From contig JAFZPV010000042.1 in assembly GCA_017552535.1 (NCBI GenBank), forward strand, positions 1-38,176: 38,176 nt of DNA. The letters are read 5' to 3'. Under the pieces are notes generated by a model. It was not told where the DNA came from. It did no database searches and worked only from the letters and a program-made list of their open reading frames with translations. A program made the position numbers and the translations under genes. Position 1 is the stretch's first letter, and the number at the start of each line of letters is the position of its first letter. Below, piece by piece: positions 2,776 through 38,176 of the stretch. The DNA comes from Clostridia bacterium. GTDB lineage: Bacteria; Bacillota; Clostridia; Christensenellales; Aristaeellaceae.

Positions 2776-2909
2776 CGCCGGAAATGAAATGGGATTTCAT
2801 TTCCGGCGGTAAGGGTTTGCTGCGCTCCCGATGAAAATCGCTCCTCGGGCCGGCAAAGCCGGCCCTGCGGATTGAAATTGGAGGGGCGCCGCCCCTCCAA
2901 ACTACCCGG
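2776..2909 (-). repeat. Mosaic palindromic element, copy 1 (inverted relative to copies 2 and 3)
   Basis: Non-coding DNA between tig and fucU. Read on the minus strand, its core closely matches 27912-28000 and 38007-38100. It contains three palindromes: a 15-bp perfect stem with a 3-base loop (2776-2790 with 2794-2808), an 8-bp stem with loop AAA (2847-2854 with 2858-2865), and GGAGGGGCG with its complement (2880-2888 with 2890-2898). The conserved single-strand link reads AATTTCAATCCGCAGG on the minus strand. No ORF or transposase is present. It lies just 3' of fucU, so it could also end or protect that mRNA. Confidence 0.8.
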
Positions 2910-2942
2910 TGGATCCTTCTGCCAAAGCCCCGGAGTAACCCT

Positions 2943-3368
2943 TTACTTTACCACGCCCTTTTTGAGGATGATGTTGGCGTACAGGGCGCTTTCGCCCGTG
3001 GCCACCACGGCGTAGCATTTCTTTGCCCGCTCATAGAAAGCGAAGCGCTCGATGTTCTCGATCTTTTTATCGCCTTCGCGCCGGGCGATCACTTCCTTGT
3101 ATTCGTCCCAGATCACCGGCACCACGTTGTCGCCGGGCACCACTTCCATCAGCGCCACCGGCGCTTCCACGTAGGTGTCCAGCGGGAACAGGGCCAGGAT
3201 CGCGTCCAGCACTTCTGTCACGCCGTGGCCGTCCAGACGCACCAGGCGCTGGGCGATGGACGCGGCGGGAAAGTTGCCGTCGCCGATGCAGATCTCGTCT
3301 CCGTGGCCCATTTCCATCAGGATCTTGATCAGTTCCGGACTGATGACTGGGGATATACCTTTCAGCAT
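2943..3368 (-). CDS. fucU: L-fucose mutarotase (RbsD/FucU family)
   Basis: Interconverts the alpha and beta anomers of L-fucose so that it can enter the fucose pathway. The 141-residue length fits FucU. It opens with MLKGISPVISPELIKIL and has the active-site segment GHGDEICIGDGNFP (H22, D30), then RFAFYERAKK and the typical C-terminal NIILKKGV. These match FucU more closely than ribose-type RbsD. The start at 3368 has an AGGAGG site. It lies 15 bases after the P-type-ATPase-like gene and ends the long minus-strand operon. No other fucose gene is in the window, so the local partner pathway is unseen. Confidence 0.9.
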   Translation of the reverse strand: MLKGISPVISPELIKILMEMGHGDEICIGDGNFPAASIAQRLVRLDGHGVTEVLDAILALFPLDTYVEAPVALMEVVPGDNVVPVIWDEYKEVIARREGDKKIENIERFAFYERAKKCYAVVATGESALYANIILKKGVVK

Positions 3369-3383
3369 AACGTACCTCCTATT

Positions 3384-5240
3384 TCAGCGCGCGGCTGATT
3401 TGCCGCGTTTTTCCCATTTTACGCCCCTGAGCATCAAAAGGTTCACCGCCAGCATGACGGGAGACGCTACGAGCGGGGCCAGGCTGTAGCCCAGGCGGGC
3501 ATGCACGAGACCCGCCGCCAGCGGAAGGCATACAGCTTCGTAAGCCGCCAGACACCAGAGGCGCTTCTTTGCACGCCTGACGGCGGCGCGGGCGAAGCTC
3601 ACCGCAAAGGGGATGCTTTCGACAGCTGCGCCCACGGGCGCGTCTGACCGGCCGGATACGTCCGCCGTGAGCGTTTTGCTTTCCATGGGGCCAGCCCGGT
3701 CGGCGCGGACGTAGAGATAATCTTCTTTTCCAGCCGCCAGCAGGCGCTTTGTCACGTCCGCATCCTGGTCGTAGGTCACGCTGTCCGCGCCGGCGCGCAG
3801 GGCCAGCTCTTCGCTGACCGGTGTCTTTTCTCCGGACGCCATCATAACGGTGAGCCCCATTTCCTTCAGGGCGGAAACGGCGTTTTTCGCGCCCGGCTTC
3901 AGGGCGTCCCTTAAGGCGATGATCCCCTTTACGCGCCCCGCCGTAGCCACGAACAAAGCCGTGCAGCCGTCCCGCGCCAGCTCGGCAGGTTTGTCTTCCC
4001 AGGCCGCCATATCCAGCGCGTTTTTGAGCATGAAACCGTAATCGCCCGCCAGCACCCGCGTTTCGCCGGCCAGGGCGCGCACGTTCGCGCCTTCCCCTTC
4101 CCGGTCCACCAGGGGATCCAGCGGGATATCCATAAAGGCCGCCCGGGCCAGGACCGCCCGCGAAACGGGGTCTTCCCCGCCCTGAAGCGCCGATGCCGCC
4201 AGGGAGAAAAGCATTCTCTCGGACGTGTCCGGCGTAAGCGCGCAGCCTTCCACGGTCTTGTTTCCGCCGTACAAAGCACCTTCCTGCTCCAGAACCGCGC
4301 TTTTGATGCCGGAAAGCATTTCCAGCGTGCGCATGGACTTGATATTTACGCCCTTTTTGTGCAGTTCCGCCAGAGCGCTGAGCAGCACCGCGGAAGCCGC
4401 ACGGCCGGGTATGCCGGGACAGGCGAGGGCCAGCACGCACACGGCGCAGCTCACCGCGAAGGCGGCGCTTTCGCCCTTCATCAGCCAGAACACCGCGCTT
4501 GCCGCGGCAAGCGCCAGCGCGGCCCACGCCAGGATGCGCCCCGCGCGGTACGCCCGCTTTACCAAAAGCGGAGGCTCTTCGTCCGCCTTCGACCGGTCCG
4601 GCGTCTGAAGGATGGCCGCCAGCTTTTTTCTCTGGCGCCTTTCCAGGTCCCGGCCAAGGGTCATCACCACCGGCAGAAGCGCAGCACAGTCAAAAAACAG
4701 GCTCATGCGCAATTCTTCGCCCCGGCTCATCCGGGCCGCGCCCGCGATGAGGGAAGGCACGCTGTACACCGCCGCGCACAGGCTGGCCAGGATCGCAAAC
4801 GCATAGGTATCCGGCGCGTTCCGGCGGGAAAACAGGTTTTTGGGGCGGAAGTATTCCGCGCACAGCGCCCACACAGCCAGCGTGAGAAGCATCTGCGTGA
4901 TGCCCGCGCTGACGGGATATGAAAACGTCCTGGGCAGGGGCAGGCCCCACAGCGCGCCCAGCGTGAGATACACGCCCGCAAGGGCCAGCAGCCACCTGAC
5001 GGGCGCACGAAAGTCAAAGCCGGGCATACTGTCTTCTGCGGGCAGGACGCTGATCCCTTCCCGCAAAAGCGCTTCACCCAATACGCCGGCCTCCGGCCCG
5101 CCTTCACGGCACGATGCGTGCAGAAGGCCGCCCCGCAGGCGCGCGCCAAGCACGCCGGGCTGCTTTTTAAGAAGCTTCACGGCGCGCTTTTCGTCCTCAG
5201 GGGAAACGTCCGGCGGAAAGGTGAAGGCAAAACGCTTCAT
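3384..5240 (-). CDS. P-type-ATPase-like membrane protein lacking catalytic motifs (pseudoenzyme)
   Basis: An intact 618-residue protein with the layout of a heavy-metal (P1B) ATPase: HMA-like fold at about 1-68 without CxxC, paired membrane helices at about 82-190, a helix pair at about 232-295, a P/N-domain-like region at 300-540, and C-terminal helices to 605. Key motifs are altered or absent. The membrane CPC/CPH reads CPG (274-276). The phosphorylation loop DKTGT reads EQEGA (318-322), with no Asp. The TGES actuator domain appears deleted between about 205 and 232. SxHP reads GGEDP, and GDGxND reads VSGRSDAP (528-535). Pumping by the known mechanism is therefore unlikely. The start at 5240 overlaps the preceding stop as ATGA; longer upstream ORF sequence was rejected. 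Function unknown; regulatory or structural roles are possible. Confidence 0.8.
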   Translation of the reverse strand: MKRFAFTFPPDVSPEDEKRAVKLLKKQPGVLGARLRGGLLHASCREGGPEAGVLGEALLREGISVLPAEDSMPGFDFRAPVRWLLALAGVYLTLGALWGLPLPRTFSYPVSAGITQMLLTLAVWALCAEYFRPKNLFSRRNAPDTYAFAILASLCAAVYSVPSLIAGAARMSRGEELRMSLFFDCAALLPVVMTLGRDLERRQRKKLAAILQTPDRSKADEEPPLLVKRAYRAGRILAWAALALAAASAVFWLMKGESAAFAVSCAVCVLALACPGIPGRAASAVLLSALAELHKKGVNIKSMRTLEMLSGIKSAVLEQEGALYGGNKTVEGCALTPDTSERMLFSLAASALQGGEDPVSRAVLARAAFMDIPLDPLVDREGEGANVRALAGETRVLAGDYGFMLKNALDMAAWEDKPAELARDGCTALFVATAGRVKGIIALRDALKPGAKNAVSALKEMGLTVMMASGEKTPVSEELALRAGADSVTYDQDADVTKRLLAAGKEDYLYVRADRAGPMESKTLTADVSGRSDAPVGAAVESIPFAVSFARAAVRRAKKRLWCLAAYEAVCLPLAAGLVHARLGYSLAPLVASPVMLAVNLLMLRGVKWEKRGKSAAR

Positions 5241-6382
5241 GCCGATTTTTCGCCGCCCCGGGCGAGGATCACGGGCACGGTCATTTCTTCTTCGGTGAGG
5301 CCGGCGTGCTGGCCGATCAGGCTGGGCACCTTGCCTTCCATCGTATCGTAGCGGATGAACCGGCTGCCGGTGGCGCAGGCCAGGTAATCGCCCATAAAGT
5401 CCTCCGTGCGGGGATGGGGCGTGCCCCGGCCCAGCAGGTGGTTTTTCAGGGCATCCTCCCGGCTGATCAGCAAAAAGTCCTCCCCGCACACCGCCTGGAA
5501 TTCGCGCTCGAACTGGGCGCGGCGCCAGGGCTTTACGAACATGGCCGACGCGCGCGGCTCCACACAGGGCGGCATCCACAGGCATTCGTCAAGGCTCCTG
5601 ATCTCGTTTACGATCACCGGCTCCACCGCGTCCACCAGGCCGTGGTCGGCGGTGGCGATCAAAAGGGCGTCATCAGGCAGTCTGGATGCGAACAGGCTCA
5701 GCTCCCGGTCTATGCGCTCAAAGTGCGCCTTCGTTTCCGGCGCGTTCACGCCCGCCAGGTGCATGGTGTGGTCCGGTTCACCGGTGTACATGCATATCAG
5801 TTTCGGGCCTTCCTCCCGGCACAGCGAAAGCGCGCAGGTGAGCATGTCGCCGAACTCCCGTATCGTATGGGTCTGACAGCAGCCGTTGGTGGCGTAACTC
5901 ACGAAGGGAAAGATCATATGGGTCTTTGCGCCCTCGGGGCTGCCCAGCGCCGGGGGCAGCGGCATCAGCTTCGGCGCGGGCGAGCCGCCGGGAAACCGGT
6001 CTCCCAGATGGCTCTCCATGCCGCTGAACACGTCCAGCTGCCGGGCGCAGCTTTTGAAATACAGGCTCCAGCCCAGCCAGCCGTGCTCCAGCGGCGAAAG
6101 CCCCGTCCATATGGAGGTGGTGGCGGCGGTGGTGGTGGAAGGATACACGGCGCTGACCGCCGCCCGGTCGTGGGTGCGCAGAAACGAGGTTTCGGGCAGA
6201 TGGCGCTTAAGCAGGTATTCGCCCATGCCGTCGCACAGCACGATCACGATCTTGCTGATCCCGCCTTCTGCGAGCTTTTCGTCGATCTCCCTGAGCGTCG
6301 GGTAGGCGCAGGAGCCGCCGAAATACCTGACCGCGCTGGACGTGAGCGACAGGGAGCTGCGGTCATAATCGGGAAATATCAT
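5237..6382 (-). CDS. Alkaline phosphatase superfamily phosphodiesterase/nucleotide pyrophosphatase
   Basis: Probably a two-metal phosphodiesterase or phosphatase. The 381-residue protein keeps a full set of superfamily metal ligands: D51 (CDGMG), a Thr nucleophile in YPSTTTAATTS (about 83-85), D204 and H208 (GEPDHTMH), D246 and H247 (ADHGL), and H359 (GQHAGL). No signal peptide or membrane helix is seen, so it is likely cytoplasmic. ATG at 6382 was chosen because GGAGAGG lies about 10 bases upstream; a TTG nine bases earlier sits too near that site. It starts one base after the gltX stop, and its own stop overlaps the next start. Substrate unknown. Confidence 0.85.
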   Translation of the reverse strand: MIFPDYDRSSLSLTSSAVRYFGGSCAYPTLREIDEKLAEGGISKIVIVLCDGMGEYLLKRHLPETSFLRTHDRAAVSAVYPSTTTAATTSIWTGLSPLEHGWLGWSLYFKSCARQLDVFSGMESHLGDRFPGGSPAPKLMPLPPALGSPEGAKTHMIFPFVSYATNGCCQTHTIREFGDMLTCALSLCREEGPKLICMYTGEPDHTMHLAGVNAPETKAHFERIDRELSLFASRLPDDALLIATADHGLVDAVEPVIVNEIRSLDECLWMPPCVEPRASAMFVKPWRRAQFEREFQAVCGEDFLLISREDALKNHLLGRGTPHPRTEDFMGDYLACATGSRFIRYDTMEGKVPSLIGQHAGLTEEEMTVPVILARGGEKSA

Positions 6383-6383
6383 T

Positions 6384-7886
6384 TTAACCAAGCCTCTCCA
6401 TGGATGTTTTGAGGCGCGAAAGCGTCTCGTCTTTACCCAGCAGGTACATGATCTCGAAGGCGCCGCCGGGCGTGTTCATCTGTCCGGACACGGCGATGCG
6501 CAGCGGCCAGAGCATCTGGCCGTTCTTCATGCCGCGGCCGGCGATGAAATCAAGCACCGTATCGTGCAGGTTTTCTTCGCTCCAGTCGCCGATGCCCTCC
6601 AGCACGGGCAGAACGCTGTTTAAGGCGTCCCGGGCGCTTTCCACGGTGCTCTTCTGCTTTTTGTTCACGTAGAAATCGTTCGGAAAATCAGGCATCTTCG
6701 CAAGGAACGCCACCATCTCCGGCAGCTGGCCGAAGAACTCGGTGCGGCCCTGCAAAAGCTCGCACAGGCGGCCCAGGTCGAAGCCCTCCGGCAGGACCTT
6801 TTCCAGCCAGGGCCCGGCGTATTCCCGGTACTTCTCCGGCGTCAGGCGGCGGATGTACTCAGCGTTGAACCAGTTGAGCTTCTGCATATCGAAGATGGAG
6901 GGAGACTTGCTGAGGCCCTCCAGGTCGAACAGCTTTTCCAGCTCGTCCAGGGTAAAGAACTCCTCTTCGCCCTTGGGGCTCCAGCCCAGAAGCACCATGT
7001 AGTTGATGACCGCCTCCACCAGGTAGCCCCTGGACAGAAGGTCTTCAAACGTCGGGTCTCCCTTGCGCTTGGAGAGCTTGCGCACGATCTCCACGGGCTG
7101 GCCGTCCTCGCCTGTAACCGGCTGGCCGTTTTCGTCCTTCTGCACGTCGCGGGTCATCACAGGAGTCAGGTGGATGTATACCGGCGGCTCCCAGCCGAAG
7201 GCCTCGTACATGAGGTTGTACTTAGGGGCGCTGGACAGGTATTCGTTGCCGCGCATCACGTGGGTGATGCCCATGGTGTGGTCGTCGATGACGTTGGCGA
7301 AATTGTAGGTGGGCAGGCCGTCCGCCTTGATGAGCACGTTGTCGTCCAGGGTGGAGCAGTCCACCTCCACATGGCCGTAGATCACGTCGTCAAAGCCCGC
7401 CTTGCCCTCCGTGGGCACGTTCTGCCTGATCACGTAGGGCTCGCCCGCATCGAGCTTTTTCTGGATCTCTTCTTTGGAAAGCCCCAGGCAGTGCTTGTCG
7501 TACTTGAAGGTCTCGCCTTTGGCCTCCGCTTCGGCGCGGCACCGGTCCAGGCGCTCCCTGGAGCAGAAGCAGTAGTAGGCTTTTCCCTTTTCGATGAGCT
7601 GTTTGGCGTAGGGCAGGTACATATCCTTCCTCTCGCTCTGCACGTAGGGGCCGTATTCTCCGCCCACGTCGGGACCTTCGTCGTGGGAAAGCCCCGCGAT
7701 CTTCAGGGACTGGTAGATCGCGTCCACCGCGCCGGCGACTTCCCTTTCCTGATCGGTATCCTCTATTCTCAAAATGAATGTGCCGCCGTTTTTGCGCGCC
7801 CAAAGATAGGTATACAGCGCGGTGCGCAGGTTGCCCAGGTGCATATAGCCCGTGGGACTGGGGGCGAAGCGGGTACGAATTTTCAT
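6384..7886 (-). CDS. gltX: Glutamyl-tRNA synthetase
   Basis: Class I aminoacyl-tRNA synthetase that charges tRNA-Glu, in the cytoplasm. The 500 residues show the HIGH-type motif as HLGN (16-19) and the KMSKS-type loop as KLSKR (270-274). A Cys cluster C106, C108, C133 resembles the zinc site of some GluRS proteins, though the fourth ligand is not obvious. A short insertion rich in DENGQPV precedes the KLSKR loop. The anticodon-binding helical domain fills the last third. The start at 7886 has AGAGGTG upstream. It is embedded in the long minus-strand operon, 50 bases after the TerB-like gene and directly before the phosphodiesterase gene. Confidence 0.97.
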
Positions 7887-7936
7887 ATAAAAGCACCTCT
7901 GATCCGTTAGTTTTGAGTCATAGTAGCATATCGGGG

Positions 7937-8542
7937 TTAAGATATCGTGAAGGGCGGCGCGTCCGCGTTTGGGTTTTCCTTATAGTATCTCCATCTTTCG
8001 CCCAGCAGCTCCGCAACGCTTTTTGCGTAAGCCAGATGCAGGCTGTCAGGATCGTATTCGTCCGCGCTCGTCAGAAGCGCGGCCAGGCGGGAGATCATCT
8101 TTTCCAGCATGCCCAGCTCGTCCCGGTCCGAGTCGATAAAATCTCCCACAGCCAGGGGACGGACGAAGGCGTCGCACACGTTTTCCCTGAGCAGCCGGTC
8201 GATATGCTCCATCAGCTGGCCGGCGCTGTCTTTATCCATTCTGCTGAAGTCGTTCCAGCTTAAGTTGATGCGGTTGCCCGTACGCGCCCGCAGGTACGAC
8301 AGGATGTCCGCGCGCTGGGAGATGCGGGCGATGAATTCCTTCTCCGCCGGGTCCACGCGGCCGTTGGACAGGGCGATGTGCATCAGTATCGCCTGCAGGA
8401 TCAGGTCGAATTCCCCCAGCATGGTCTTCGTGTCCCATACGATGTCCGCGCGGGCGCGCACGTATTCTCCCATGGAGGAGATCAGCACGGCGGCTTCGTT
8501 GTATATCCCTGAGGCCTTGTCCAGCCTTTCCTGAACGGTCAT
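7937..8542 (-). CDS. Helical cytoplasmic protein, possibly TerB-like
   Basis: A 201-residue, mostly helical, soluble protein with no signal peptide. The stretch [19 protein letters not shown] (about 51-69) resembles the acidic helix-loop-helix start of TerB/DjlA-type domains, which often bind metal or sense stress. The rest is not recognised. The start at 8542 is supported by AAAGGAG. It lies 22 bases after the secreted beta-lactamase-fold gene and 50 before gltX, so it is in the same operon. The TerB assignment rests on one segment only; a general hypothetical label would also be fair. Confidence 0.6.
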
Positions 8543-8564
8543 GCGGCCTGCTCCTTTCGCGGGG

Positions 8565-10943: not shown

Positions 10944-10958
10944 GATAATGTCTCCTGC

Positions 10959-11903
10959 TTATTTGCCCAGCATCGCCGCGCCGATGATGCCCGCGTCGTT
11001 GCCCAGCGTGGCCAGCTCCACCCGCGCGTAGGGCATGGTCTTGTAGAACACCATGGAGGGCAGCTTGGCCCTGACCGCGTCCAGAAGGAACTGCCCCGCG
11101 TGGCTCACGCCGCCGCCCAGCACGATGACTTCCGGGTCGATAAAGTTGATGATGCCCACCAGCCCCGCGCACAGATGGTACACGTACAGGTCGAACACCT
11201 TCTTCGCGGTCTCGTCTCCCGCCTTGGCGGCGTCGATCACGGTCTTGGCCTCGATCTTCTCTTCCTCGCCGCCAGCCAGGGTCATGATCATGCTTTCGGG
11301 ATGCTCCTTCACCGCCTGCCGGCCCATGCGGATCAGCGCGGTGGCGCTGGCGTAGCGCTCCCAGCAGCCGCGATTGCCGCAGGAGCACATCTCGCCGTCC
11401 ACCACGGTGATCATGTGGCCCAGCTCGCTGCCCACGCCGTGGGTACCGGAATACACCTTGCCGTCCAGCACGATGCCGCCGCCAACGCCCGTTCCCAGGG
11501 TGATGAACACGCTGTTTTTCACCCCGGCGCTCACGCCCGCCACGCTCTCAGCCAGGCCCGCCACCGTGGCGTCGTTGCCGATAAAGATGGGCTTGTCCAC
11601 CGTTTCGCGCATCCATTCGATCACCGGCACCTCGTGCCAGTAGAGGTTGGTGCAGAAGGGCACGTGCCCGGTACGGGGGTCCTGTATGCCGGGAAGGCCG
11701 ATGCCGATGGCCTTCACATCGTCCATGGACACGTTTTCTTCCTTCGCCACCCTCAGGGCCAGGGCCGCCATGTCGTCCACGATGGGACGGGGTCCCCTCT
11801 CCACCAGCGTGGGGCAGGTCGCCTTGCGCAGGATCTTTCCGTTTTCGTCCACAAGACCCGCTTTGATGCCCGTACCGCCAAGATCGATTCCGATATAATA
11901 CAT
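10959..11903 (-). CDS. ROK family sugar kinase (glucokinase-like)
   Basis: Phosphorylates a hexose with ATP in the cytoplasm; glucose is most likely. The 314 residues contain the phosphate loop DLGGTGIKAG (7-16), the catalytic Asp in GNDA (D111), the second nucleotide motif LGTGVGGG, and the ROK zinc site H163 with C173, C175 and C180 in CSCGNRGC. The start at 11903 has GGAGGCG upstream; a longer reading frame to 12023 has no ribosome site and crosses the promoter. It is the first gene of the minus-strand operon. N-acetylmannosamine or another sugar cannot be excluded by motif alone. Confidence 0.9.
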   Translation of the reverse strand: MYYIGIDLGGTGIKAGLVDENGKILRKATCPTLVERGPRPIVDDMAALALRVAKEENVSMDDVKAIGIGLPGIQDPRTGHVPFCTNLYWHEVPVIEWMRETVDKPIFIGNDATVAGLAESVAGVSAGVKNSVFITLGTGVGGGIVLDGKVYSGTHGVGSELGHMITVVDGEMCSCGNRGCWERYASATALIRMGRQAVKEHPESMIMTLAGGEEEKIEAKTVIDAAKAGDETAKKVFDLYVYHLCAGLVGIINFIDPEVIVLGGGVSHAGQFLLDAVRAKLPSMVFYKTMPYARVELATLGNDAGIIGAAMLGK

Positions 11904-11940
11904 ACCGCGCCTCCATATCTGTTGAATGATGTTTTTTCTG

Positions 11941-11949: not shown

Positions 11950-12023
11950 CGTCCCGGAGCCAAAAAAAAGACCGCATGCGCCAAAACCGGCCTTCGTCCA
12001 TGCATATCGGCTGGATTTAACAC

Positions 12024-12109: not shown

Positions 12110-12118
12110 GCCTGCCCG

Positions 12119-27112: not shown

Positions 27113-27835
27113 ATGGGAAAAATCTCTCCGCAAAACCTCTTCGCAAAACCTCTTCGCAAAACCTCTTCGCTGAAATCCTTTGCCCTGATCCTGCTCCTGG
27201 CAGCCCTGGCTTTGTGTCTGAGCGGCTGTCAGCTTCATGAAAAACTGCTGGATGAGCAGCTGGACCTGTTCGTTTCCAGCATGAACGCCGACGATCCCTC
27301 CCTCCTTTTCAGCGGCATGCACCCGCAGGTCTTCCGGGAGGATTTTGATCCCTTCTATCAGCAGATCAAACCGCTGTGGCGGCCGGCCGGCGCCGAAGAC
27401 TTCAAAATGACCGGTGTGCAGGTGAATACCCGGCAGGTGAACGGCGAACGCTACGGACGCTATACAGGCACGTGGAAAGTAAAGCTCGAAGAAGAGCTGT
27501 ACCAGTTGACCATCGTATACGATGTGGACGAAAAAGGCAGCGGCATAGGCACCCTGTCGTTCTACCGGATCGAGGAAACTCCTTTAGCCGTTTCCGTTAC
27601 CGGGATCGCGCTGGTCATTCTGTGCTTTGCCTTTATCATATACACGGCGGTCGATATCCTTCGCAAAAAGCCGCGCGCGTATATCCTGGTGCTGATCCTG
27701 GCTGTAGCCCTGACGTTTGGCTTCAGGGCAGGCACGGTACAGATCGCTATTCCGCTGGGCAGTATAGGCTACTGGGTCCTGCGCCGCAGGCTTCTGAAAA
27801 AACGGTCCGGTGATCTGGCTTCTCCGCTGTCTTGA
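27113..27835 (+). CDS. Predicted lipoprotein with two membrane helices and an in-frame 13-bp repeat array
   Basis: A 240-residue protein with a long N-terminal lead (1-22), a hydrophobic signal and lipobox LSGC (C39). The outer domain (40-150) is alpha/beta and resembles small DUF3887-type domains, though this is weak. Two membrane helices follow at about 157-178 and 188-215. The lead is encoded by a 13-bp tandem repeat that uses all three frames in turn, so changes in copy number would shift the frame. The start at 27113 follows AAGGA by 12 bases. It is the last gene of the plus-strand cluster and is preceded by a 63-base gap. Confidence 0.8.
   Translation: MGKISPQNLFAKPLRKTSSLKSFALILLLAALALCLSGCQLHEKLLDEQLDLFVSSMNADDPSLLFSGMHPQVFREDFDPFYQQIKPLWRPAGAEDFKMTGVQVNTRQVNGERYGRYTGTWKVKLEEELYQLTIVYDVDEKGSGIGTLSFYRIEETPLAVSVTGIALVILCFAFIIYTAVDILRKKPRAYILVLILAVALTFGFRAGTVQIAIPLGSIGYWVLRRRLLKKRSGDLASPLS
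27123..27170 (+). repeat. 13-bp tandem repeat inside the lipoprotein gene
   Basis: The unit CCTCTTCGCAAAA occurs exactly at 27136-27148 and 27149-27161, partially at 27162-27170 (9 bases), and with two changes at 27123-27135, giving about 3.7 units. Because 13 is not a multiple of 3, each gain or loss moves the reading frame. Located between the start codon and the signal peptide. Confidence 0.92.
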
Positions 27836-27911
27836 ACCGGCTATACTCAGTTTCTTTGATAGCTTTCTTTTTAGAAATCCCGTATTCTAAAAGCTTTGAA
27901 ACGGGGCTGTT

Positions 27912-28268
27912 CCGGGTGGTTTGGAGGAGCAACGCCCCTCCATTTTCAATCCGCAGGGCCAGCTTTGCCGGCCCGAGGAGCGATTTTTGCAAAGGCGAGC
28001 TTGCCCGCCGAAAGCAAAGAATCGCTACTATGCAGTTTGAGGTTGACTTGCCTTTGGCAAGTCAATCCCGCACAAAATGCGGGACGCGCTGCTTCAAATC
28101 AAAGATTTGAAGCAGCGCGCCTTTCGCCCGGAAATGCCCGCAGGCATTTCAGAAAAAACTGAAAGCCTTTTACTGGGATCGGCAAATGGTCCACGTTTCA
28201 GAAGTAATAGGGTTTAAATGTATCCAAAACCAAACCGCTGGAAATGAAATCTTATTTCATTTCCAGCG
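27912..28268 (+). repeat. Mosaic palindromic element, copy 2 (longest)
   Basis: Fills most of the 455-base gene-free gap between the lipoprotein and the HAD gene. After the shared core (27912-28025) comes a block of three abutting hairpins: 10-bp stem, loop TTT (28043-28065); 7-bp stem (28066-28084); 16-bp perfect stem, loop AAA (28085-28119). Then follow an 8-bp stem with loop CGCA (28131-28150) shared with copy 3, about 85 bases without clear structure, and a 15-bp stem (28236-28268) shared with copy 1. The 28026-28125 block is absent from copies 1 and 3. No ORF of note is present. Confidence 0.85.
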
Positions 28269-28270
28269 AG

Positions 28271-28292
28271 AGGCTGCTGAGCAGCCTTTTTT
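28271..28292 (+). terminator. Intrinsic terminator, plus strand
   Basis: AGGCTGCT (28271-28278) faces AGCAGCCT (28280-28287) and is followed by six T. It would stop transcripts from the plus-strand cluster ending with the lipoprotein, and its T-run reaches into the stop codon of the convergent HAD gene. Confidence 0.8.
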
Positions 28293-29196: not shown

Positions 29197-29278
29197 ACAT
29201 TCATCTCCTTGTCAAAAAGGGATTCTTTTGCGGGACCAAGCGTTCTTAAGTGAACTCAAGCCCCGAAGAGTGATTTAT

Positions 29279-29310
29279 GGCGGGGGAAGCCTTCCCCCGC
29301 CAGGTTTTTT
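29279..29310 (+). terminator. Terminator-like hairpin, plus strand orientation
   Basis: A perfect 10-bp stem GGCGGGGGAA/TTCCCCCGCC (29279-29288 with 29292-29301), loop GCC, then AGG and six T at 29305-29310 that run into the stop codon of the minus-strand zinc-ribbon gene. On the minus strand only an A-run precedes the hairpin and no U-tract follows it, so the strong direction is plus, opposite to both neighbours. Confidence 0.65.
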
Positions 29311-31090: not shown

Positions 31091-31100
31091 ATATTTCCTC

Positions 31101-31454
31101 CTAATCCGAAGTCGAGTATACCTCTATGGCCCGGGATCTTGTGGTAGCTATCTCCTGGACCTTCGGTTTTTCGCTCGGGATCATCGCCGAAAACCACAGG
31201 TACATCACAATCACGGCCAGAATGCCGCCCGCTATGCGCACAGCCGGCTCGCATCTGTCCCGCGTGCACACCCGGTAAATGCCGTAGGGCGGCACGAGCA
31301 TGCACCAGAGTATATCGATAACGGCTGAGCGCATCGCGTCGTTTTCCTTTTTGGCCGCGTTCCGGCTCACGTTCTGGGTATAGCTGCCGTGCTTTCCCCC
31401 GGTGCGCCTCTCGCCGCGCCTGAAGCGATCGTAGCTTTCGCGCTTTGTCGCCAT
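31101..31454 (-). CDS. Small membrane protein of unknown function
   Basis: A 117-residue protein with a basic, polar N-terminus (1-40) and two hydrophobic segments (about 42-62 and 72-92). ATG at 31454 was preferred over GTG at 31457 because GGAGG lies six bases upstream. It is encoded 10 bases before the zinc-ribbon gene and shares its promoter at 31514, so the two probably work together. No family recognised. Confidence 0.8.
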   Translation of the reverse strand: MATKRESYDRFRRGERRTGGKHGSYTQNVSRNAAKKENDAMRSAVIDILWCMLVPPYGIYRVCTRDRCEPAVRIAGGILAVIVMYLWFSAMIPSEKPKVQEIATTRSRAIEVYSTSD

Positions 31455-31513
31455 CACATGCCTCCGCCGCTTAAAATGATGCCTGTGTACAGAAATCCTT
31501 CAAAATCGGAGTC

Positions 31514-31542
31514 ATTATATAACGATTGCAGCCAGATGTCAA
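31514..31542 (-). promoter_or_regulatory. Consensus promoter of the small membrane protein/zinc-ribbon operon
   Basis: Minus strand: TTGACA (31537-31542), exactly 17 bases, TATAAT (31514-31519). Both boxes match the sigma-A consensus perfectly, one of the strongest promoters in the window. No operator-like palindrome overlaps it. Confidence 0.88.
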
Positions 31543-31566
31543 GATTTGTGCTTTTTTGGGGCAAAA

Positions 31567-32430
31567 TCATTCATTTTCGCCGCTGGAAACTATGTTTGGC
31601 TCGTAATCGAACAGCTCGTTGAGCGTCACCATGGAGTAGCCGTTTTCACTCAGCACGCGGATCATTTTGGTGAGCTGCTTTACGTCGTAGCTCTCCAGAT
31701 TGACGCCGATGATCTGGCCCGGCCGGATCTGCTCAAAGCGCGTGGGCTGATACACCGCCCAGCGGGCGATGCCCTTGTACCCCTTGCGGGCCAGCAGAGC
31801 GTGTAGCCTGTCGTTTTCGTCGTCCGCCAGGTCGTCGGTGCGCAGGAAGTGCAGCTGGTATTCCTCGCCCATGTAGGAGCGCAGAACAGCCTCCACGTCG
31901 CTTAATTCCTTTTCCATATCCGCGTCGCTCATGTCGCTCAGACGGTTCCCCGTATAGCCCCGGCTCTCGATCTCGTGACCGATCAGCGCAGCCGCGCTCC
32001 AGAAATCCCGCGCGCCGGAAAGCTGCTTGCCGGTGGGGAAAAACGTGAGGTCCGCACCGTATTCCAGCGTGGCGCTCAGAAGCGCGTTCATGTCGTCCTC
32101 GCCCAAAAAGCCCTGCACGGTGATGGCCACCTGGTTTTCCTCCGTATTGGCGGAGTAGAACACGGGCAGGAGCCCTTCCCGTTCCGCGCTGGGTCGCTTG
32201 TCCGGCACGGGCGTGGGCGTGACCGTCACCTGCGGGTGCCCGTATATGTCCGTAACGTCGAACGCCGGCTGCTGTTTTCTCTCCGAAACGATATAATATA
32301 CGATCAGCGCCGCGAACACCAGGATCGCCGCCACAAGCAGCAGCGTTCCCAGGTTGAGCCTGACCCTGCCGGACGGGCGCTTGACGGGCAGCTCCGATCC
32401 GTTATATCCTGTCTGCAAGCGAAAGTACAC
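31567..32430 (-). CDS. Membrane-anchored NodB-like (polysaccharide deacetylase fold) protein without catalytic residues
   Basis: A 287-residue protein with one membrane helix (about 27-48), a Pro/Thr linker and a domain that follows the NodB order: VAITVQGFLGEDDMNALL, then YGADLTFFPTGKQL, then IGHEIESRGYTGNRLSDMS. In active enzymes the first segment is TFDDG and the third has HxxxH; here they read TVQGF (104-108) and R157...G161. Metal binding should be lost. The start is uncertain: GTG at 32430 is the first possible codon in frame, while TTG at 32418 is better spaced from GGGAGG. It has its own promoter. Confidence 0.8.
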   Translation of the reverse strand: MYFRLQTGYNGSELPVKRPSGRVRLNLGTLLLVAAILVFAALIVYYIVSERKQQPAFDVTDIYGHPQVTVTPTPVPDKRPSAEREGLLPVFYSANTEENQVAITVQGFLGEDDMNALLSATLEYGADLTFFPTGKQLSGARDFWSAAALIGHEIESRGYTGNRLSDMSDADMEKELSDVEAVLRSYMGEEYQLHFLRTDDLADDENDRLHALLARKGYKGIARWAVYQPTRFEQIRPGQIIGVNLESYDVKQLTKMIRVLSENGYSMVTLNELFDYEPNIVSSGENE

Positions 32431-32451
32431 CTCCCATACGAATCCGTGTTT

Positions 32452-32480
32452 ATCATATCAGCGTTTGCGTCCTGTGTCAA
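32452..32480 (-). promoter_or_regulatory. Promoter of the NodB-like gene
   Basis: Minus strand: TTGACA (32475-32480), 17-base spacer ending TGA, TATGAT (32452-32457). The predicted start near 32445 leaves a leader of only about 15 bases. Confidence 0.8.
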
Positions 32481-32603
32481 GTACACAAGCGCCTTGACAG
32501 CACCCAAGTGGGTATAAAACGGCAAAAATCCGTCCAAGTTGGCGCAAAAGTGGTAATACATTCCTGCTGTCCGGTTTTTTTTTGCGTTTTTGATTCAAAA
32601 TGC

Positions 32604-32636
32604 AAAACGGAAGGGCGATTTTGTCCCTCCCGTTTT
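32604..32636 (-). terminator. Terminator of the nucleoside transporter operon
   Basis: A 12-bp stem with one G-T wobble (32604-32615 with 32625-32636) and a 9-base loop, 28 bases after the last permease stop. In the minus direction it ends in TTTT, then GCATTTTG. A fair intrinsic terminator. Confidence 0.65.
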
Positions 32637-32663
32637 CGTACAGGTATTTTTGCCAAAGAATCT

Positions 32664-33626
32664 TCATCTTTCCTCGCGGAAGTACGAAAGACCCAGCGAG
32701 GCGGGCGGCTGGTTTTCGCGCTTGTTGCGTATGGAGGAGATGATCAGAACCACGATGGTGAACAGGTACGGCAGCATTTTGAGTATGGGTTTGGCAGCCA
32801 CGGTCACGGTGATCCACGGTATGTTGGCGATATGGGAGGAACAGGAAAACAGCACGCCGAAGATGAACGAGCCGGGGATCGTCATGTGGGGCTTCCACAG
32901 CACGAAGATGACCAGCGCGATGGACAGCCAGCCGTACGCCTCGATGCTCAGGTACGCCTCCTGGGAGGCCATGTAGTCTATGATGTAGTACAGTCCGCCC
33001 AGGCCCGCGATGCCGCTGCCGATGCAGGTAGCCAGGTATTTGTAGCGGGTCACGTTGATGCCCGCGGCGTCCGCGGTGCCGGGGTTTTCGCCTACGGCCC
33101 TCAGGTTCAGGCCCGTGCGCGTGCGGTACAGCACGTAGGAGCTCAGGCAAGCCACGATCACCGCAAGGAAGAACATCACGCCCAGCACCTGCAGCGAATC
33201 CGAGCGCCCCGCGAAGGGAAAGCGGAAGTACTGCTTGGGGGTCACCAGGTAGCGCTTTACGCTGATGCGGGTCTTGTCGCTCATCAGCACCTTCATCAGG
33301 CCCACGCCGAAGGTGGTGAGGGCCAGGCCCGTCACGTTCTGGTTGGCGCGCAGGGTAACGGTGAGAAAGCTGTATATCAGGCCCATCAGCGCACCGGTGA
33401 GAAAAGACGCCAGTATGCCCAGGATCACGATCAGGAACGGGGGCAGCGCGCTTTCACCGATCAGGTTCAGCATCAGGCAGCCGCCCGCGCCGCCCATGCA
33501 CATCACGCCGGGAATGCCAAGGTTCAGGTGACCGGCCTTCTCGGTGAGGATCTCGCCCGTGGAGCCGTACATGAACGTGGCTCCAAAGCCCAGCGAATCC
33601 AGCAGAAAATCGACCCACGGGTTCAT
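32664..33626 (-). CDS. ABC transporter permease, nucleoside (BMP-type) system, second subunit
   Basis: A 320-residue membrane protein of the BPD_transp_2 family, similar to the NupQ-type subunit. The early segment GSTGEILTEKAGHLNLGIPG (about 21-40) and the loop NPGTADAAGINVTRYKY (about 185-200), which docks on the ATPase, are typical. About eight to nine membrane helices. The start at 33626 overlaps the first permease stop as ATGA. Works with the two partner genes upstream and the BMP receptor to import nucleosides. Confidence 0.92.
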   Translation of the reverse strand: MNPWVDFLLDSLGFGATFMYGSTGEILTEKAGHLNLGIPGVMCMGGAGGCLMLNLIGESALPPFLIVILGILASFLTGALMGLIYSFLTVTLRANQNVTGLALTTFGVGLMKVLMSDKTRISVKRYLVTPKQYFRFPFAGRSDSLQVLGVMFFLAVIVACLSSYVLYRTRTGLNLRAVGENPGTADAAGINVTRYKYLATCIGSGIAGLGGLYYIIDYMASQEAYLSIEAYGWLSIALVIFVLWKPHMTIPGSFIFGVLFSCSSHIANIPWITVTVAAKPILKMLPYLFTIVVLIISSIRNKRENQPPASLGLSYFREER

Positions 33627-34780
33627 CGTACCGCCTCCTTGGGCTCCCTTTTGCGGAAGTTGAGCTTGTAATTGATGAAGAATTCACTGCCGATGATAAA
33701 GAACAGAACGATGCCGATGATCACGTTGGGCAGCGCGCCGGAGATCTCAAAGCTTGTGGAGATCTGGTCCGCGCCCTGGTTTAAGAATATGATCACGCCG
33801 GCAGTGAGGATCATCATCAGCGGATCGAATTTGGCCAGCCACGCCACCATGATGGCCGTAAAGCCCTGGCCTCCCACCGAGTCCGTGGTCACGGAGCGGT
33901 CGAGCCCGGCGCCGATCAGGTATCCCGCCAGGCCGCAGAGCAGCCCGCTTACGATCATGGTTCGGATGATGACCTTCTTTACGCTGATGCCCACGTACCT
34001 GGCAGTGCGCACGCTCTCGCCCACCACGCTGATCTCGTAGCCGTGTTTGGTATAGTTGAGGTATATATAGATCAGCGCCGTCGCCGCCAGCACGATCAGG
34101 ATGATCACCAGATAATCGCTGTAGGCGGGCTTGCTCAGGCCCGTAAACACCGTGGGGAATTTGCCGCTGGAAAGTTTGCCCAGGGAAGAGGAACCGCTGG
34201 GCACCCATTTGATCAGGCAGTAGGACACCAGGAACGTGGCCACATAGTTCATCATCAGCGTGAACAGCGTTTCGTTGGTGTTCCACACGGCCTTGAACAG
34301 CGCGGGGATCAGGCCCCACACCGCGCCCGCCAGCAGCGCCGCCGCCAGCATCAGTACCAAAAGCGACCATTCCGGCCAGCGCACCGCGGGATTGTATTTT
34401 CCGCCCAGGTAGAAGTTGACAGCGATGGCCGCCAGTACGCCCATCAGGGTCTGGCCTTCGGCACCGATGTTCCAGAACCGCATGCGGAAGGCGGGCGTCA
34501 GCGCCAGCGCGATGCACAAAAGCACCGCAATATTTTTCAGGAAACTCCACAGCTTGCGCTCGGTGGAAAACGAACCCTTGATAAAGCAGTTGTAGAACTC
34601 CCAGATGCGGCCGGGTTCCTTCTGCAGCTTGCCCACCAGCAGGAACGCCACCAGGCCGCACACCAGCATGCCCAGCACGAAGGCGGCGACGCGTATCAGC
34701 ATGGACGCCGCAAAGCCGGGCGTTTCGCGCTTGGTGAGGTGGACGAGGGGTTCTTTGAGCCGCGTATGCCTGGGCTGCAT
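33623..34780 (-). CDS. ABC transporter permease, nucleoside (BMP-type) system, first subunit
   Basis: A 385-residue membrane protein of the NupP-type BPD_transp_2 family. Signatures are FRMRFWNIGAEGQTLMG (about 103-119), NETLFTLMMNYVA, and the ATPase-docking loop GESVRTARYVGISVKK. About nine to ten helices, the first at about 29-50. The start at 34780 shares one base with the ATPase stop (TGATG). Second of three tightly coupled genes. Confidence 0.92.
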   Translation of the reverse strand: MQPRHTRLKEPLVHLTKRETPGFAASMLIRVAAFVLGMLVCGLVAFLLVGKLQKEPGRIWEFYNCFIKGSFSTERKLWSFLKNIAVLLCIALALTPAFRMRFWNIGAEGQTLMGVLAAIAVNFYLGGKYNPAVRWPEWSLLVLMLAAALLAGAVWGLIPALFKAVWNTNETLFTLMMNYVATFLVSYCLIKWVPSGSSSLGKLSSGKFPTVFTGLSKPAYSDYLVIILIVLAATALIYIYLNYTKHGYEISVVGESVRTARYVGISVKKVIIRTMIVSGLLCGLAGYLIGAGLDRSVTTDSVGGQGFTAIMVAWLAKFDPLMMILTAGVIIFLNQGADQISTSFEISGALPNVIIGIVLFFIIGSEFFINYKLNFRKREPKEAVR

Positions 34781-36477
34781 CAGTCATTCTCTCCTTCCGT
34801 ATGGGTCTTGGTCATAAGATAGCCGAGCTCTTCTTTCTGTACGGTCCTGCCGTCCACCGTGCCGGTGACCGCGCCGGAGTTCATCACCAGTATGCGGTCG
34901 CACAGCGCCATGAGCACATCCAGATCCTCGCCCACGAAGATCACCGCCGTGCCTTTTTCCTTCTGGGTGTTGAGCAGATTGTATATCGTATAGGAGGAAT
35001 TGATGTCCAGTCCCCGCACCGGGTAAGCGGCCATGAGCACCTTCGGGGAGGAAGATATCTCGCGCCCCACCAGCACCTTCTGCACGTTGCCGCCGGAGAG
35101 CCGCCTCACGGGCGTGCGCACGGAGGGCGTTACCACGTCCAAATCGCGCACGATGTCCTCGCCGAGTTTCTTGGGCTTGCTTCGCTCCAGAAAGATGCCC
35201 TGGCCCTTGCGGTAGGAGCGCAGCATCATGTTGTCGCTGATGCCCATACTGCCCACCAGGCCCATGCCCAGCCTGTCTTCGGGCACGAAGGAGAGCTTTA
35301 CGCCCAGATCCCTGATCTCCAGGGGCGTTTTGTCCCTGAGGCTCATGACCTCGTCGTCGTTGAACAGTATCTTCTCGTCCTGAACCAGCTGCCTTACCTG
35401 TTTGTCGCTCAGGCCGCCGAGCTTCACCGCGTTTCCGTCCGGATCGTGGAACAGCCCCTGGGCCGCCATATGGCGGATCTGCCCCAGCTGCTTGTGGAAG
35501 AAGGTCACGGGCCTGTTCTTTTTGGGATTGGTGAATATGATCTCGCCCGATTGGGGCTTTTGCAGGCCGGCGATGCACTCAAGCAGCTCCTTCTGGCCGC
35601 TGCCGGCGATGCCCGCGATGCCCAGGATCTCGCCGCCCCGGGCAGTAAAGGACACGTTTTTCAGGATGCGCACGCCTTCCGCGTCGCTCAGGTTCAGCCC
35701 TTTGACCTCTATGCGGGGCCTGGGATCCACGGGCTCGGAGCGCGCGATGTTCAGGTTCACCTTGCGGCCCACCATCATATCGGTCAGCGCGCCTTCGCTG
35801 GTCTCGGAGGTATTCACGATGTCGATCAGCCTGCCCTTGCGCATGACCGCCACACGGTCGGAGACCTCCATGACCTCGTTTAATTTGTGCGTGATGATGA
35901 TCACGCTCTTTCCGTCCGCCACCATGCGCCTAAGGATCTCGAAAAGCCGCCTGATCTCCTGCAGGGTAAGCACGGCGGTGGGCTCGTCCAGGATCAGGAT
36001 GTCCGCGCCGCGGTACAGCACCTTGATGATCTCTACGGTCTGCTTTTCGCTTACGGACATATCGTATATCTTCTTTTTTGGGTCTATGTGAAAGCCGTAG
36101 CGGCGGGCGATCTCCTCCACTTTGGCGTTTACTTTCTTTATGTCATTGCCGCCTTTGCCCTTCAGGCCCAAAGCCACGTTTTCGGCAGCGGTAAAGATGT
36201 CTACCAGCTTGAAGTGCTGGTGGATCATGCCGATCTTATGGTCGAAGGCGTCCTTGGGGGAGCGTATCACCACCTCGGTGCCGTCTATGCTGATGCTGCC
36301 GGCGTCGGGAAAGTATATGCCCGCCACCATGTTCATCAGCGTCGTCTTGCCGCAGCCGTTTTCGCCCAGTATGGCAAGCACTTCGCCCTTGTATACGTCA
36401 AGGCTCACGTCGTCGTTGGCCAGTACGTCGCGCCCGAAGCGCTTGGTGATGTGTTTCAGCTGTAAAGCAGGCTGCAT
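34780..36477 (-). CDS. ABC transporter ATPase with two nucleotide-binding domains, nucleoside (BMP-type) system
   Basis: A 565-residue NupO/RbsA-type ATPase that drives nucleoside uptake. Domain 1 has GENGCGKT (Walker A), MSVSEKQ (signature) and ILILDEPTAVLT. Domain 2 has the degenerate GIAGSGQK, as usual in this family, with LSGGNVQK and GEDLD. The family is usually near 510 residues; here about 55-60 extra residues are inserted in domain 2, between SGEIIFTNPKK and the VPEDR motif (about 328-395). The start at 36477 has GGAGG. It has its own promoter just upstream, separate from the receptor gene. Confidence 0.93.
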   Translation of the reverse strand: MQPALQLKHITKRFGRDVLANDDVSLDVYKGEVLAILGENGCGKTTLMNMVAGIYFPDAGSISIDGTEVVIRSPKDAFDHKIGMIHQHFKLVDIFTAAENVALGLKGKGGNDIKKVNAKVEEIARRYGFHIDPKKKIYDMSVSEKQTVEIIKVLYRGADILILDEPTAVLTLQEIRRLFEILRRMVADGKSVIIITHKLNEVMEVSDRVAVMRKGRLIDIVNTSETSEGALTDMMVGRKVNLNIARSEPVDPRPRIEVKGLNLSDAEGVRILKNVSFTARGGEILGIAGIAGSGQKELLECIAGLQKPQSGEIIFTNPKKNRPVTFFHKQLGQIRHMAAQGLFHDPDGNAVKLGGLSDKQVRQLVQDEKILFNDDEVMSLRDKTPLEIRDLGVKLSFVPEDRLGMGLVGSMGISDNMMLRSYRKGQGIFLERSKPKKLGEDIVRDLDVVTPSVRTPVRRLSGGNVQKVLVGREISSSPKVLMAAYPVRGLDINSSYTIYNLLNTQKEKGTAVIFVGEDLDVLMALCDRILVMNSGAVTGTVDGRTVQKEELGYLMTKTHTEGEND

Positions 36478-36507
36478 GGTTCCCTCCGATTTGGTCTTTG
36501 TGATGGT

Positions 36508-36537
36508 ATAATATCGGAACAGGTCCTATATCGTCAA
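36508..36537 (-). promoter_or_regulatory. Internal promoter before the transporter ATPase
   Basis: Minus strand: TTGACG (36532-36537), 18-base spacer, TATTAT (36508-36513). It could express the ATPase and permeases apart from the receptor. Confidence 0.6.
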
Positions 36538-36570
36538 TGAGGAGTGAGGCACGAAGCCCCGCTCCCCATT
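36536..36570 (-). promoter_or_regulatory. Long hairpin between the BMP receptor and the ATPase genes
   Basis: A 15-bp stem with two G-U pairs and one mismatch (36536-36550 with 36556-36570), with TTCG in the loop on the minus strand. It begins 27 bases after the receptor stop and touches the -35 of the next promoter. It has no U-tract. Such hairpins often protect the 3' end of a highly expressed receptor mRNA; that role is inference. Confidence 0.55.
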
Positions 36571-36597
36571 GATCACGGTATGTGTATCGTTTTTGGT

Positions 36598-37788
36598 TTA
36601 GAACGCCATGTTCAGCAGCTCGATGCCGTCGATGTTCACATCGAAGTAAGGAGCGGAACGGTATTCGCTCTCGTGGAAGTAGCCGTCGGAAACCACTTCG
36701 GTGTCAGCGGTGTAGGCGGGATCGGTGTCCACGTCGGCCAGATAGCTGGTGAGGGCTTCGCCGTTCACGGTGATGAAGCCTTCGGTGGCGGTGTCGAACA
36801 CGTTCAGGGTGCCCGCTTCGAACGCGGCCTTGAGCTCGGCGATCTTCTCCACAGTGCCCTCGGCGGCCACGGCGGTGTTGATGTCGGTCAGCACGACGGA
36901 GCCGGTGGCAATGGTGCCGGTCCAGTCGGTGTCAACGGCTTCGCCAGCGGCGACCTTGTTGCAGACGTAGATCAGGTAGGGAGCCCAGTCGATTCGGGAA
37001 GAAACGATGAAGGTGTTGGGGCAGCTCTCGATGGTGGAGCCGTTGTAGCTGATGTTGGGGATACCGGCGTTCTCGCAGGCAGTGGGAGCGCCCATGGAGT
37101 CGGCGTGCTGGCTGATCAGGTCGCAGCCGGCGGCGATCAGCGCCTCGGCGGCGGACTTCTCTTCCATCTCGTCGTACCAGGAACCGGTGAACTGCACCTT
37201 CATGGTCACATCGGGGCAAACGCTCTTGGCGCCCAGATAGAAGGAGGTGTAACCGGAGATAACCTCAGCGTAGGTGAAGGCGCCAACGTAGCCCATCAGG
37301 GGCTTTTCGCCCTTCAGCTTGCCGGCGGCGATGATCTCGTTGAGCTTCATTCCGGCAGCGACACCGGCGAGATAACGGCCTTCGTAGATGGCGGCAAAGG
37401 CGTTGTGGAAGTTGGCGAGGCCTTCGGTGTGGGCCATGGTGCCGGTGGCGTGGCAGAACTCCACGTTCTCGTACTCCTTGGCGGCTTCGATCATGTAGGT
37501 CTCATGGCCGAAAGAATCGGCGAACACGATGGTGCAGCCTTCTTCAGCCAGCTCGCAGGCGGCCTCGTAGCAGGCGTTGGACTCGGGGATATTCTTCTTT
37601 ACGATGACCTCGATGCCCAGGGTGTCGCGCACTTCGTAAACGGCATTGAGGAAGTTCAGGTCGTAGGTGGAATCTTCGTCGTGCAGCAGGATGACGCCCA
37701 GCTTCACGGTGTTGCCTTCGGCGACGGTGAAACCGAAGCACACGGCGCACAGCACAACGGCCAGGACCAGACTAAACAGCTTCTTCAT
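36598..37788 (-). CDS. BMP family nucleoside-binding protein of ABC transporter
   Basis: Extracellular receptor that binds the nucleoside and delivers it to the permeases. The 396 residues start with a hydrophobic signal (about 4-22, ending near FTVAEG). The mature part has the BMP pattern: ADSFGHETYMIEAAKEYENVEF, GYVGAFTYAEVISGYTSFYLGA, and WYDEMEEKSAAEALIAAGCD. A clear lipobox is not seen, which is unusual for a Gram-positive receptor. ATG at 37788 was chosen, ten bases from GGAGG; the TTG nine bases earlier is too close. Downstream are the ATPase and two permeases, so nucleoside uptake is the best assignment. Confidence 0.93.
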   Translation of the reverse strand: MKKLFSLVLAVVLCAVCFGFTVAEGNTVKLGVILLHDEDSTYDLNFLNAVYEVRDTLGIEVIVKKNIPESNACYEAACELAEEGCTIVFADSFGHETYMIEAAKEYENVEFCHATGTMAHTEGLANFHNAFAAIYEGRYLAGVAAGMKLNEIIAAGKLKGEKPLMGYVGAFTYAEVISGYTSFYLGAKSVCPDVTMKVQFTGSWYDEMEEKSAAEALIAAGCDLISQHADSMGAPTACENAGIPNISYNGSTIESCPNTFIVSSRIDWAPYLIYVCNKVAAGEAVDTDWTGTIATGSVVLTDINTAVAAEGTVEKIAELKAAFEAGTLNVFDTATEGFITVNGEALTSYLADVDTDPAYTADTEVVSDGYFHESEYRSAPYFDVNIDGIELLNMAF

Positions 37789-37832
37789 AGATCGCAATCC
37801 TCCGTTCGATTTATTCCTGTCGGAATGACATT

Positions 37833-37838
37833 ATTATA
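37833..37838 (-). promoter_or_regulatory. -10 box of the BMP receptor gene
   Basis: Minus strand TATAAT, 44 bases before the start. At the proper distance for a -35 there is only TTTTTT; TTGACA occurs further away, with a 23-base gap. The leader is too short for a purine riboswitch. Confidence 0.55.
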
Positions 37839-38006
37839 TCCCGCACGCGCGGCGCAAAAAATGTCAAAACGGGAAAGAAGCCGTTAATTTCCGAACATTT
37901 TTTGGGAGGACGGCTTTTATTATTCGGATTTTAAAAACCCAGGCCGCAAAACCCGAGCGATCGGGGGCAAAAAACAAGGGTCTGTTGCGTAAGGCGGGAG
38001 TATTCA

Positions 38007-38176
38007 CTGGGTGGTTTTGAAAGGTTGTCCCTCCAATTTCAATCCGCAGGGCCAGCTTTGCCGGCCCGAGGAGCGATTTTTGCGTCGGGAGCGAAGCAAA
38101 GCGGAGACGACCAGAGCAAAGAATCGTTTCCTTGCAGTTTTTTCGCCCGGAAATTTCCGCAGAAATTTCAGAAAAA
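38007..38176 (+). repeat. Mosaic palindromic element, copy 3 (cut by the window edge)
   Basis: Same orientation as copy 2. It shares the core (CAATCCGCAGGGCC...CCGAGGAGCG) with an 8-bp stem carrying the same A-C mismatch as copy 2 (38049-38056 with 38060-38067), the later segment AGCAAAGAATCG, and a final 8-bp stem with loop CGCA (38150-38157 with 38162-38169) before CAGAAAAA-like sequence. It lacks the three-hairpin block of copy 2. The 37839-38006 stretch before it holds no ORF I can support, only a long-loop inverted repeat AAGCCGT/ACGGCTT (about 37880-37917). Confidence 0.8.

What the first reader, a model, noticed from the sequence alone, without database searches (positions are those of the whole stretch)
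2776..38176. A dispersed family of mosaic, palindrome-built intergenic elements (three copies)
Copies at 2776-2909 (inverted), 27912-28268 and 38007-38176 share a core of about 90 bases, carry no gene, and are made almost wholly of short perfect stems with loops of about 1-5 bases. The copies differ by whole modules: one has a three-hairpin block, another a different terminal stem. Modular gain and loss resembles REP/BIME, BOX or RUP-like elements of other bacteria but I do not recognise this family. Three copies in 38 kb implies many per genome.
Basis: seen in the sequence. Interest (0 to 1): 0.75.

Follow-up and report, generated by a model that had tools for sequence, protein, structure and literature searches.

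The report
Dispersed hairpin-built repeats in rumen bacteria
The three copies belong to a family of about sixty gene-free, hairpin-built DNA repeats that sit between genes and seem to move around the genome, but what moves them is not known.

Summary
A covariance model of the core finds 59 places in the 2.39 Mb assembly that holds the window, and more in related gut and rumen Clostridia. Window copy 3 is cut by the contig end, not by biology.

The core is three hairpins whose stems covary strongly: 29 of 45 pairs change on both sides, against 19.5 in shuffles. Copies gain or lose whole modules. No Rfam family reaches its threshold.

The copies look like mobile DNA. In a sister genus one copy is absent from the same gene junction in 6 of 6 related species read. 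Copies lie close to stop codons; the right end faces the 3' end of an antisense gene in 34 of 42 cases.

It fails defining tests of a REP/RAYT system. G002 and G006 carry the element but have no Y1 transposase match. The only Y1 gene found in the window's genome is an IS200 lodged inside one copy. GTAG/CGTC tags are not conserved.

Best reading: a new family of non-autonomous, modular, palindromic mobile elements; the mobilising enzyme is unknown.

The parts
27902..28292 (+). Copy 2, long form, whole element (left end to hpG with its T-run)
   Evidence: one of 59 core places
27902..27919 (+). Left end of copy 2 (CGGGGCTGTT..., a degenerate form of GGGGCTGTTGCATAAG seen in young copies)
27923..27941 (+). 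hpA stem-loop
   Evidence: alignment
27950..27979 (+). hpB with conserved TCCGCAG...CGAGGA flanks (core)
27980..28025 (+). hpC stem-loop (core)
28030..28038 (+). 5' arm of hpD, split here by the three-hairpin block
28039..28121 (+). Three-hairpin block (28043-28065, 28066-28084, 28085-28119), present only in long forms
28122..28161 (+). Rest of hpD (TTTCGCCCGGAAA...TTTCAGAAAAAACTG)
28162..28235 (+). Linker between hpD and hpF
   Evidence: alignment
28236..28268 (+). hpF terminal stem
28270..28292 (+). hpG, terminator-like hairpin with T-run, abutting the stop codon of the - strand gene at 28291
2776..2931 (-). Copy 1, deleted form: left end 2916-2931, hpA 2880-2898, hpB 2842-2871, hpF 2776-2808
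37977..38176 (+). Copy 3, cut by the contig end: left end 37977-37993, hpA 38019-38034, hpB 38043-38072, hpC 38073-38126, part of hpD 38135-38176

Best explanation
A new family of non-autonomous mobile intergenic elements of roughly 250-400 bp, made of a chain of hairpins (left end, hpA, hpB, hpC, hpD, linker, hpF, optional hpG). Shown: many copies with unrelated flanks, presence or absence at the same gene junction between related species, exchange of whole modules, strong stem covariation, and a preferred place just after stop codons. Inferred: an unidentified transposase or HUH-type enzyme acts in trans on the hairpin ends; copies survive (or insert) best at gene 3' ends because hpF/hpG and the left end can act as two-way terminators; stems are kept perfect by selection for a folded DNA or RNA, by template-switch repair of palindromes, or both.
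For: 59 core places in the genome. Flanks differ between copies. Junction empty in 6 of 6 sister species read. Same gene 3' end with a long form, a short form, a remnant or none across six species of the window's genus. Module presence and absence, and standalone right modules. Covariation well above shuffles and slid controls. Convergent gene pairs 21 of 43 with an element against 12 of 125 without, or 11 of 56 when the gap is at least 60 nt. Right neighbour antisense in 34 of 42.
Against: No mobilising enzyme was found: Y1 matches are missing in 5 of 7 genomes of the genus, PF13610 is absent in G000, and other transposase families were not searched. No consistent target duplication: of 59 copies only 12 had both ends recognisable and no length/offset tested stood out, although one copy (C33:3603) has an exact 7-nt direct repeat and a second a near match. 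Ends are variable (hpG-like in 22 of 38 copies). A location at gene 3' ends is also what an RNA or terminator function predicts.
Confidence: 0.6

Rival explanations
1. A structured RNA family: copies are transcribed in the 3' UTRs of neighbouring genes and act as terminators, stability elements or regulators; multiplication is secondary.
For: Strong covariation with invariant unpaired motifs; position just after stop codons; terminator-like hpG with T-runs in many copies; G-T exceeds A-C in the other genomes, 99 to 34, where the + strand also folds better in 58 of 85.
Against: Wobble pairs are few, 1.5-2.3% of cells, against 14 of 135 in a small tRNA control. In the window's genome G-T does not exceed A-C (47 to 53) and the + strand folds better in only 16 of 40, so no strand is consistently favoured. 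Gain and loss at the same junction. No Rfam match.
Confidence: 0.15
2. A mutational origin: palindromes grow and are corrected by template switching during replication and spread by recombination between copies, with no transposase of their own.
For: Many two-sided changes with few wobble intermediates; one copy's hpD is a fully perfect palindrome of 23 pairs (L085:1316-1452); stem arms swapped A5/T5. Template switching can create and repair stems (abstract of PMC8794818).
Against: Does not by itself place similar elements of about 300 bp at dozens of unrelated sites, or explain an insertion at a junction empty in 6 of 6 sister species read.
Confidence: 0.13
3. A REP/RAYT or IS200/IS605-derived system moved by a Y1 transposase.
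For: Hairpin ends, no consistent target duplication, 3'-end location as for REPs (abstract of PMC3733652), and an IS200 gene lying inside one copy.
Against: Only 2 of 7 genomes of the genus have a Y1 match; the G000 gene is IS200, 154.8 bits, and scores 33 bits against a RAYT cut-off of 80; its end hairpins differ from those of the element; no conserved GTAG or CGTC tag.
Confidence: 0.08

Closest known systems
REP / BIME / REPIN elements
   Same: Palindromic, many copies, mosaic, mostly downstream of genes and between convergent or unidirectional genes (abstract of PMC3733652)
   Different: Here 250-400 bp with several different stems rather than 20-40 bp units; no conserved GTAG/CGTC tag; no RAYT found
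MITE-like bacterial intergenic repeats (Correia, ERIC, RUP, BOX; features recalled)
   Same: Non-coding, dispersed, modular or with inverted ends, inserted between genes
   Different: No sequence comparison was made; no parent IS with matching ends was found; target duplication not consistent
Mobile/repeat sequence candidates such as MRSC-65-2 (PMC11109978)
   Same: Multi-copy, covarying stems, possibly relevant as DNA (passages read)
   Different: MRSC-65-2 is described as a single long stem; this element has several hairpins. Its 250 candidates could not be compared (supplements not open to me)
IS200/IS605-derived non-autonomous elements (features recalled)
   Same: Hairpin ends, no consistent target duplication
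   Different: End hairpins differ from those of the resident IS200; 5 of 7 genomes of the genus have no Y1 match

Membership tests
REP/RAYT system | GTAG or CGTC tag at the foot of the palindrome | tested here: not met
   Of 43 full-span copies 7 hold GTAG and 16 CGTC anywhere; the commonest single position has 4 and 2 copies
REP/RAYT system | RAYT-type Y1 transposase in the genome | tested here: not met
   Y1 (PF01797) matched in G000 and G005 only, of 7 genomes of the genus; the G000 gene is IS200, not RAYT; the G005 proteins were not classified
REP/RAYT system | Mostly extragenic, near gene 3' ends | tested here: met
   34 of 42 right neighbours antisense, median 22.5 nt from hpF; 21 of 43 pairs convergent
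MITE of a DDE transposon | Terminal inverted repeats | tested here: inconclusive
   Young copies have GGAGCTGTTGCA on the left and TGCAACAGCCCC on the right; many copies have other or degraded ends
MITE of a DDE transposon | Fixed-length target duplication | tested here: inconclusive
   12 of 59 copies testable, no combination stood out; one exact 7-nt case
MITE of a DDE transposon | Autonomous element with the same ends | tested here: inconclusive
   End-motif scan of G000 gave 47 sites; those inspected were element copies, modules, a terminator-like hairpin or coding sequence; PF13610 absent; other transposase families not searched
Known RNA family (Rfam 15) | Match at gathering score | tested here: not met
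   0 matches in the window; only sub-threshold matches in copy 2
Structured functional RNA | Transcription as a discrete RNA | not testable with these tools
   No expression data
BOX / RUP / ERIC / Correia | Sequence membership | not tested
   No reference copies were compared; features recalled

The most novel reading that the evidence does not exclude
A mobile DNA family whose whole body is a chain of foldback stems, placed mostly in one orientation against the 3' ends of genes, whose stems are renewed as perfect palindromes at the DNA level (single-strand intermediate or template switching) rather than through RNA wobble intermediates, and which is moved by an enzyme that is neither RAYT nor IS200.
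Probability: 0.28. Interest if true: 0.72.

Novelty: new variant of a known kind. Interest (0 to 1): 0.52.

Why it matters
It is an abundant element of poorly studied gut and rumen bacteria. Its copies break assemblies, lie against gene 3' ends, and covary unusually cleanly among copies of one genome. That makes the family a natural test of whether perfect stems are kept by RNA selection or by DNA template switching, and it points to a mobilising enzyme still to be found.

Tried and rejected
RAYT link: not met. IS6-like mobiliser, suggested by the TGTTGCA ends (resemblance recalled): PF13610 absent in G000. Target duplications: none consistent. Carriage on viruses: 0 exact pattern matches in viral contigs; plasmid and phage collections were not searched. 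Rfam: nothing at threshold. A purely symmetric, DNA-level maintenance of stems (equal G-T and A-C) fits the window's genome (47 to 53) but not the other genomes (99 to 34), so it is not claimed; A2 and A3 were fitted to the model. A tRNA control script first failed to parse and then gave only 6 predicted tRNAs, one of them doubtful. All-against-all comparison of held loci for empty sites gave only a partial case and within-locus matches. A query at one locus in the genus gave broken synteny. Pattern hits L106 and L115 look like coding coincidences; they and L105 and L177 were not given, which got 100 of the 104 loci. Literature: eight searches listed no title or abstract start that describes this family; three papers were opened in part (outline with abstract: PMC3733652 and PMC8794818; passages: PMC11109978). 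Most subscription journals are not held.

Full report
WHAT IS THERE. Copy 2 is a long form at about 27902-28292. Copy 1 is a deleted form at about 2776-2931 on the - strand. Copy 3 runs off the contig at 38176. Contig C5 of the same assembly ends with the same last 60 nt, so copy 3 is cut by assembly. The genome is a 2.39 Mb, 62-contig assembly, 77% complete.

COPY NUMBER. BLAST with copy 2 gave 111 matching pieces (40 of 105 candidates scored). A covariance model of the core (R1) gave 68 hits at E <= 0.01, of which 59 are distinct core places at E <= 1.2e-7 (150 of 1768 candidates scored). The other 9 are one opposite-strand hit on a copy, 7 isolated hpD parts, and one weak hit (C20:7868). 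Of the 59, 14 lie within 200 nt of a contig end, so some may be halves of one copy. Further right halves end contigs C20, C30, C43 and C47.

ANATOMY. The order 5' to 3' is: left end, hpA, TCCGCAG-hpB-CGAGGA, hpC, hpD, linker, hpF, hpG. In the long form a block of three hairpins (28039-28121) splits hpD. Standalone right modules exist at C48:22229 and C18:21450. In some other genomes the left end is itself a full hairpin, and further hairpin modules sit inside the hpD loop.

COVARIATION. I aligned 36 diverse cores without structure. 90.9% of cells pair (shuffled mean 74.1%); 29 of 45 pairs have changes on both sides (19.5); 278 cells are two-sided changes (87.3); the covariation score is 0.410 (0.123). 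0 of 500 shuffles reach these four values. A fifth measure, further pair types (59 against 54.9), was reached by 32 of 500. Sliding the partners destroys the signal. I chose the structure by eye from these same sequences, which favours it over the slid versions. Unpaired CCGCAG and CGAGGA flanks are invariant in A1, but all 36 cores were selected by a pattern containing TCCGCAG and CGAGGA, so that invariance is partly by construction.

STRAND. Wobble pairs are few. A1: 23 G-T against 19 A-C of 1578 cells. A2 (111 distinct rows, other genomes): 99 against 34 of 4395. A3 (57 distinct rows, window's genome): 47 against 53 of 2354. In pairs that are at least 80% Watson-Crick the figures are 13:8, 68:28 and 35:20. 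The control of 6 predicted tRNAs gave 14 against 0 of 135. The + strand folds better in 16 of 40 own copies and 58 of 85 others. The evidence does not fix the acting molecule or strand.

MOBILITY. Flanks of the copies differ. Pairwise identity of 49 near-full own cores has a median of 70%, with 17 of 1176 pairs at 97% or more; some of these are contig ends that may be one copy seen twice. In genus g7 a copy of G012 lies between two genes. In the six sister species where the junction was read (G316-G320, G322) it is absent; the genes are nearly adjacent or up to about 82 nt apart. The seventh, G321, gave no listed gene match there. In the window's genus, one gene's 3' end carries a long form (G000), a short form (G002), a remnant (G006) or none (G001, G004, G005); G003 gave no listed match for that gene. 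The far side of that site is not syntenic, so this second case is weaker.

LOCATION. Genes were called by a codon-usage model trained on 19 long ORFs of the window. With an element, 21 of 43 gene pairs are convergent, 17 co-directional and 5 divergent. Without one, 12 of 125 are convergent, or 11 of 56 when the gap is at least 60 nt. Of 42 copies with hpF and a gene call on the right, 34 face the 3' end of an antisense gene, median 22.5 nt from hpF to the stop (range -17 to 255); the other 8 face a gene in the same direction. On the left 32 of 54 neighbours end towards the element. An hpG-like stem follows hpF in 22 of 38 copies.

DISTRIBUTION. BLAST: 12 of 40 relatives, G000 included, all of family f1. 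Model R1: 16 of 297 genomes of the order, G000 included, with only 11 candidates scored per genome, so a lower bound; 9 of the 16 are outside f1, some with weak scores. R1 gave 113 matches at E <= 1e-6 in 100 of those loci. No viral contig matched the pattern.

MOBILISER. The only Y1 match of G000 lies inside a copy. It is IS200 by NCBIfam (154.8 bits, cut-off 55) and scores 33 against the RAYT cut-off of 80; its end hairpins differ from those of the element. Of 7 genomes of the genus only G000 and G005 have a Y1 match; G002 and G006 (both 94% complete) have none, yet gave 25 and 24 element pieces. PF13610 is absent in G000. Other transposase families were not searched, and MAGs often miss repeated genes (general knowledge). 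No consistent target duplication was found.

CONCLUSION. The best reading is a non-autonomous, modular, palindromic mobile element family, close to REP/BIME and MITE units in behaviour but outside the REP/RAYT definition where tested. Terminator function and the enzyme are inferred, not shown.

Noticed in passing
L246:1854-1998 (G000:C9): A second dispersed repeat family beside one copy, matched at 14 other places listed in the window's genome.
   Followed up: partly
L063:about 1650-2375 (G000:C6): An IS200 element with its own CCACCGGC...GCCGGTGG end hairpins has inserted into the linker of one copy.
   Followed up: yes
L085:1316-1452 (G000:C28): hpD of this copy is a perfect palindrome of 23 pairs with no internal loop, as palindrome correction would leave.
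   Followed up: no
L148, near 4346-4348: The stop codon of the gene beside the copy lies inside the copy's outermost stem; the outer part of this stem differs among copies yet stays mostly paired in those I looked at.
   Followed up: no
L173, core on the - strand: The hpC loop holds an unrelated insert with inverted ends of about 16 nt.
   Followed up: no
L111, L113, L153, L161, L167: A further hairpin module with a GCCCGGAAA-type motif sits inside a stem loop of the element.
   Followed up: no
L301:about 1040-1500 (G005): Several GGCGGCA...TGCCGCC repeats lie at the 3' end of the gene where other species have the element.
   Followed up: no
window 27119-27183: A 13-nt tandem repeat at the start of the open frame 27113-27835.
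   Followed up: no
window 38176 and contig C5 end: Two contigs of the assembly end in the same sequence inside the element, showing how the family breaks assemblies.
   Followed up: partly
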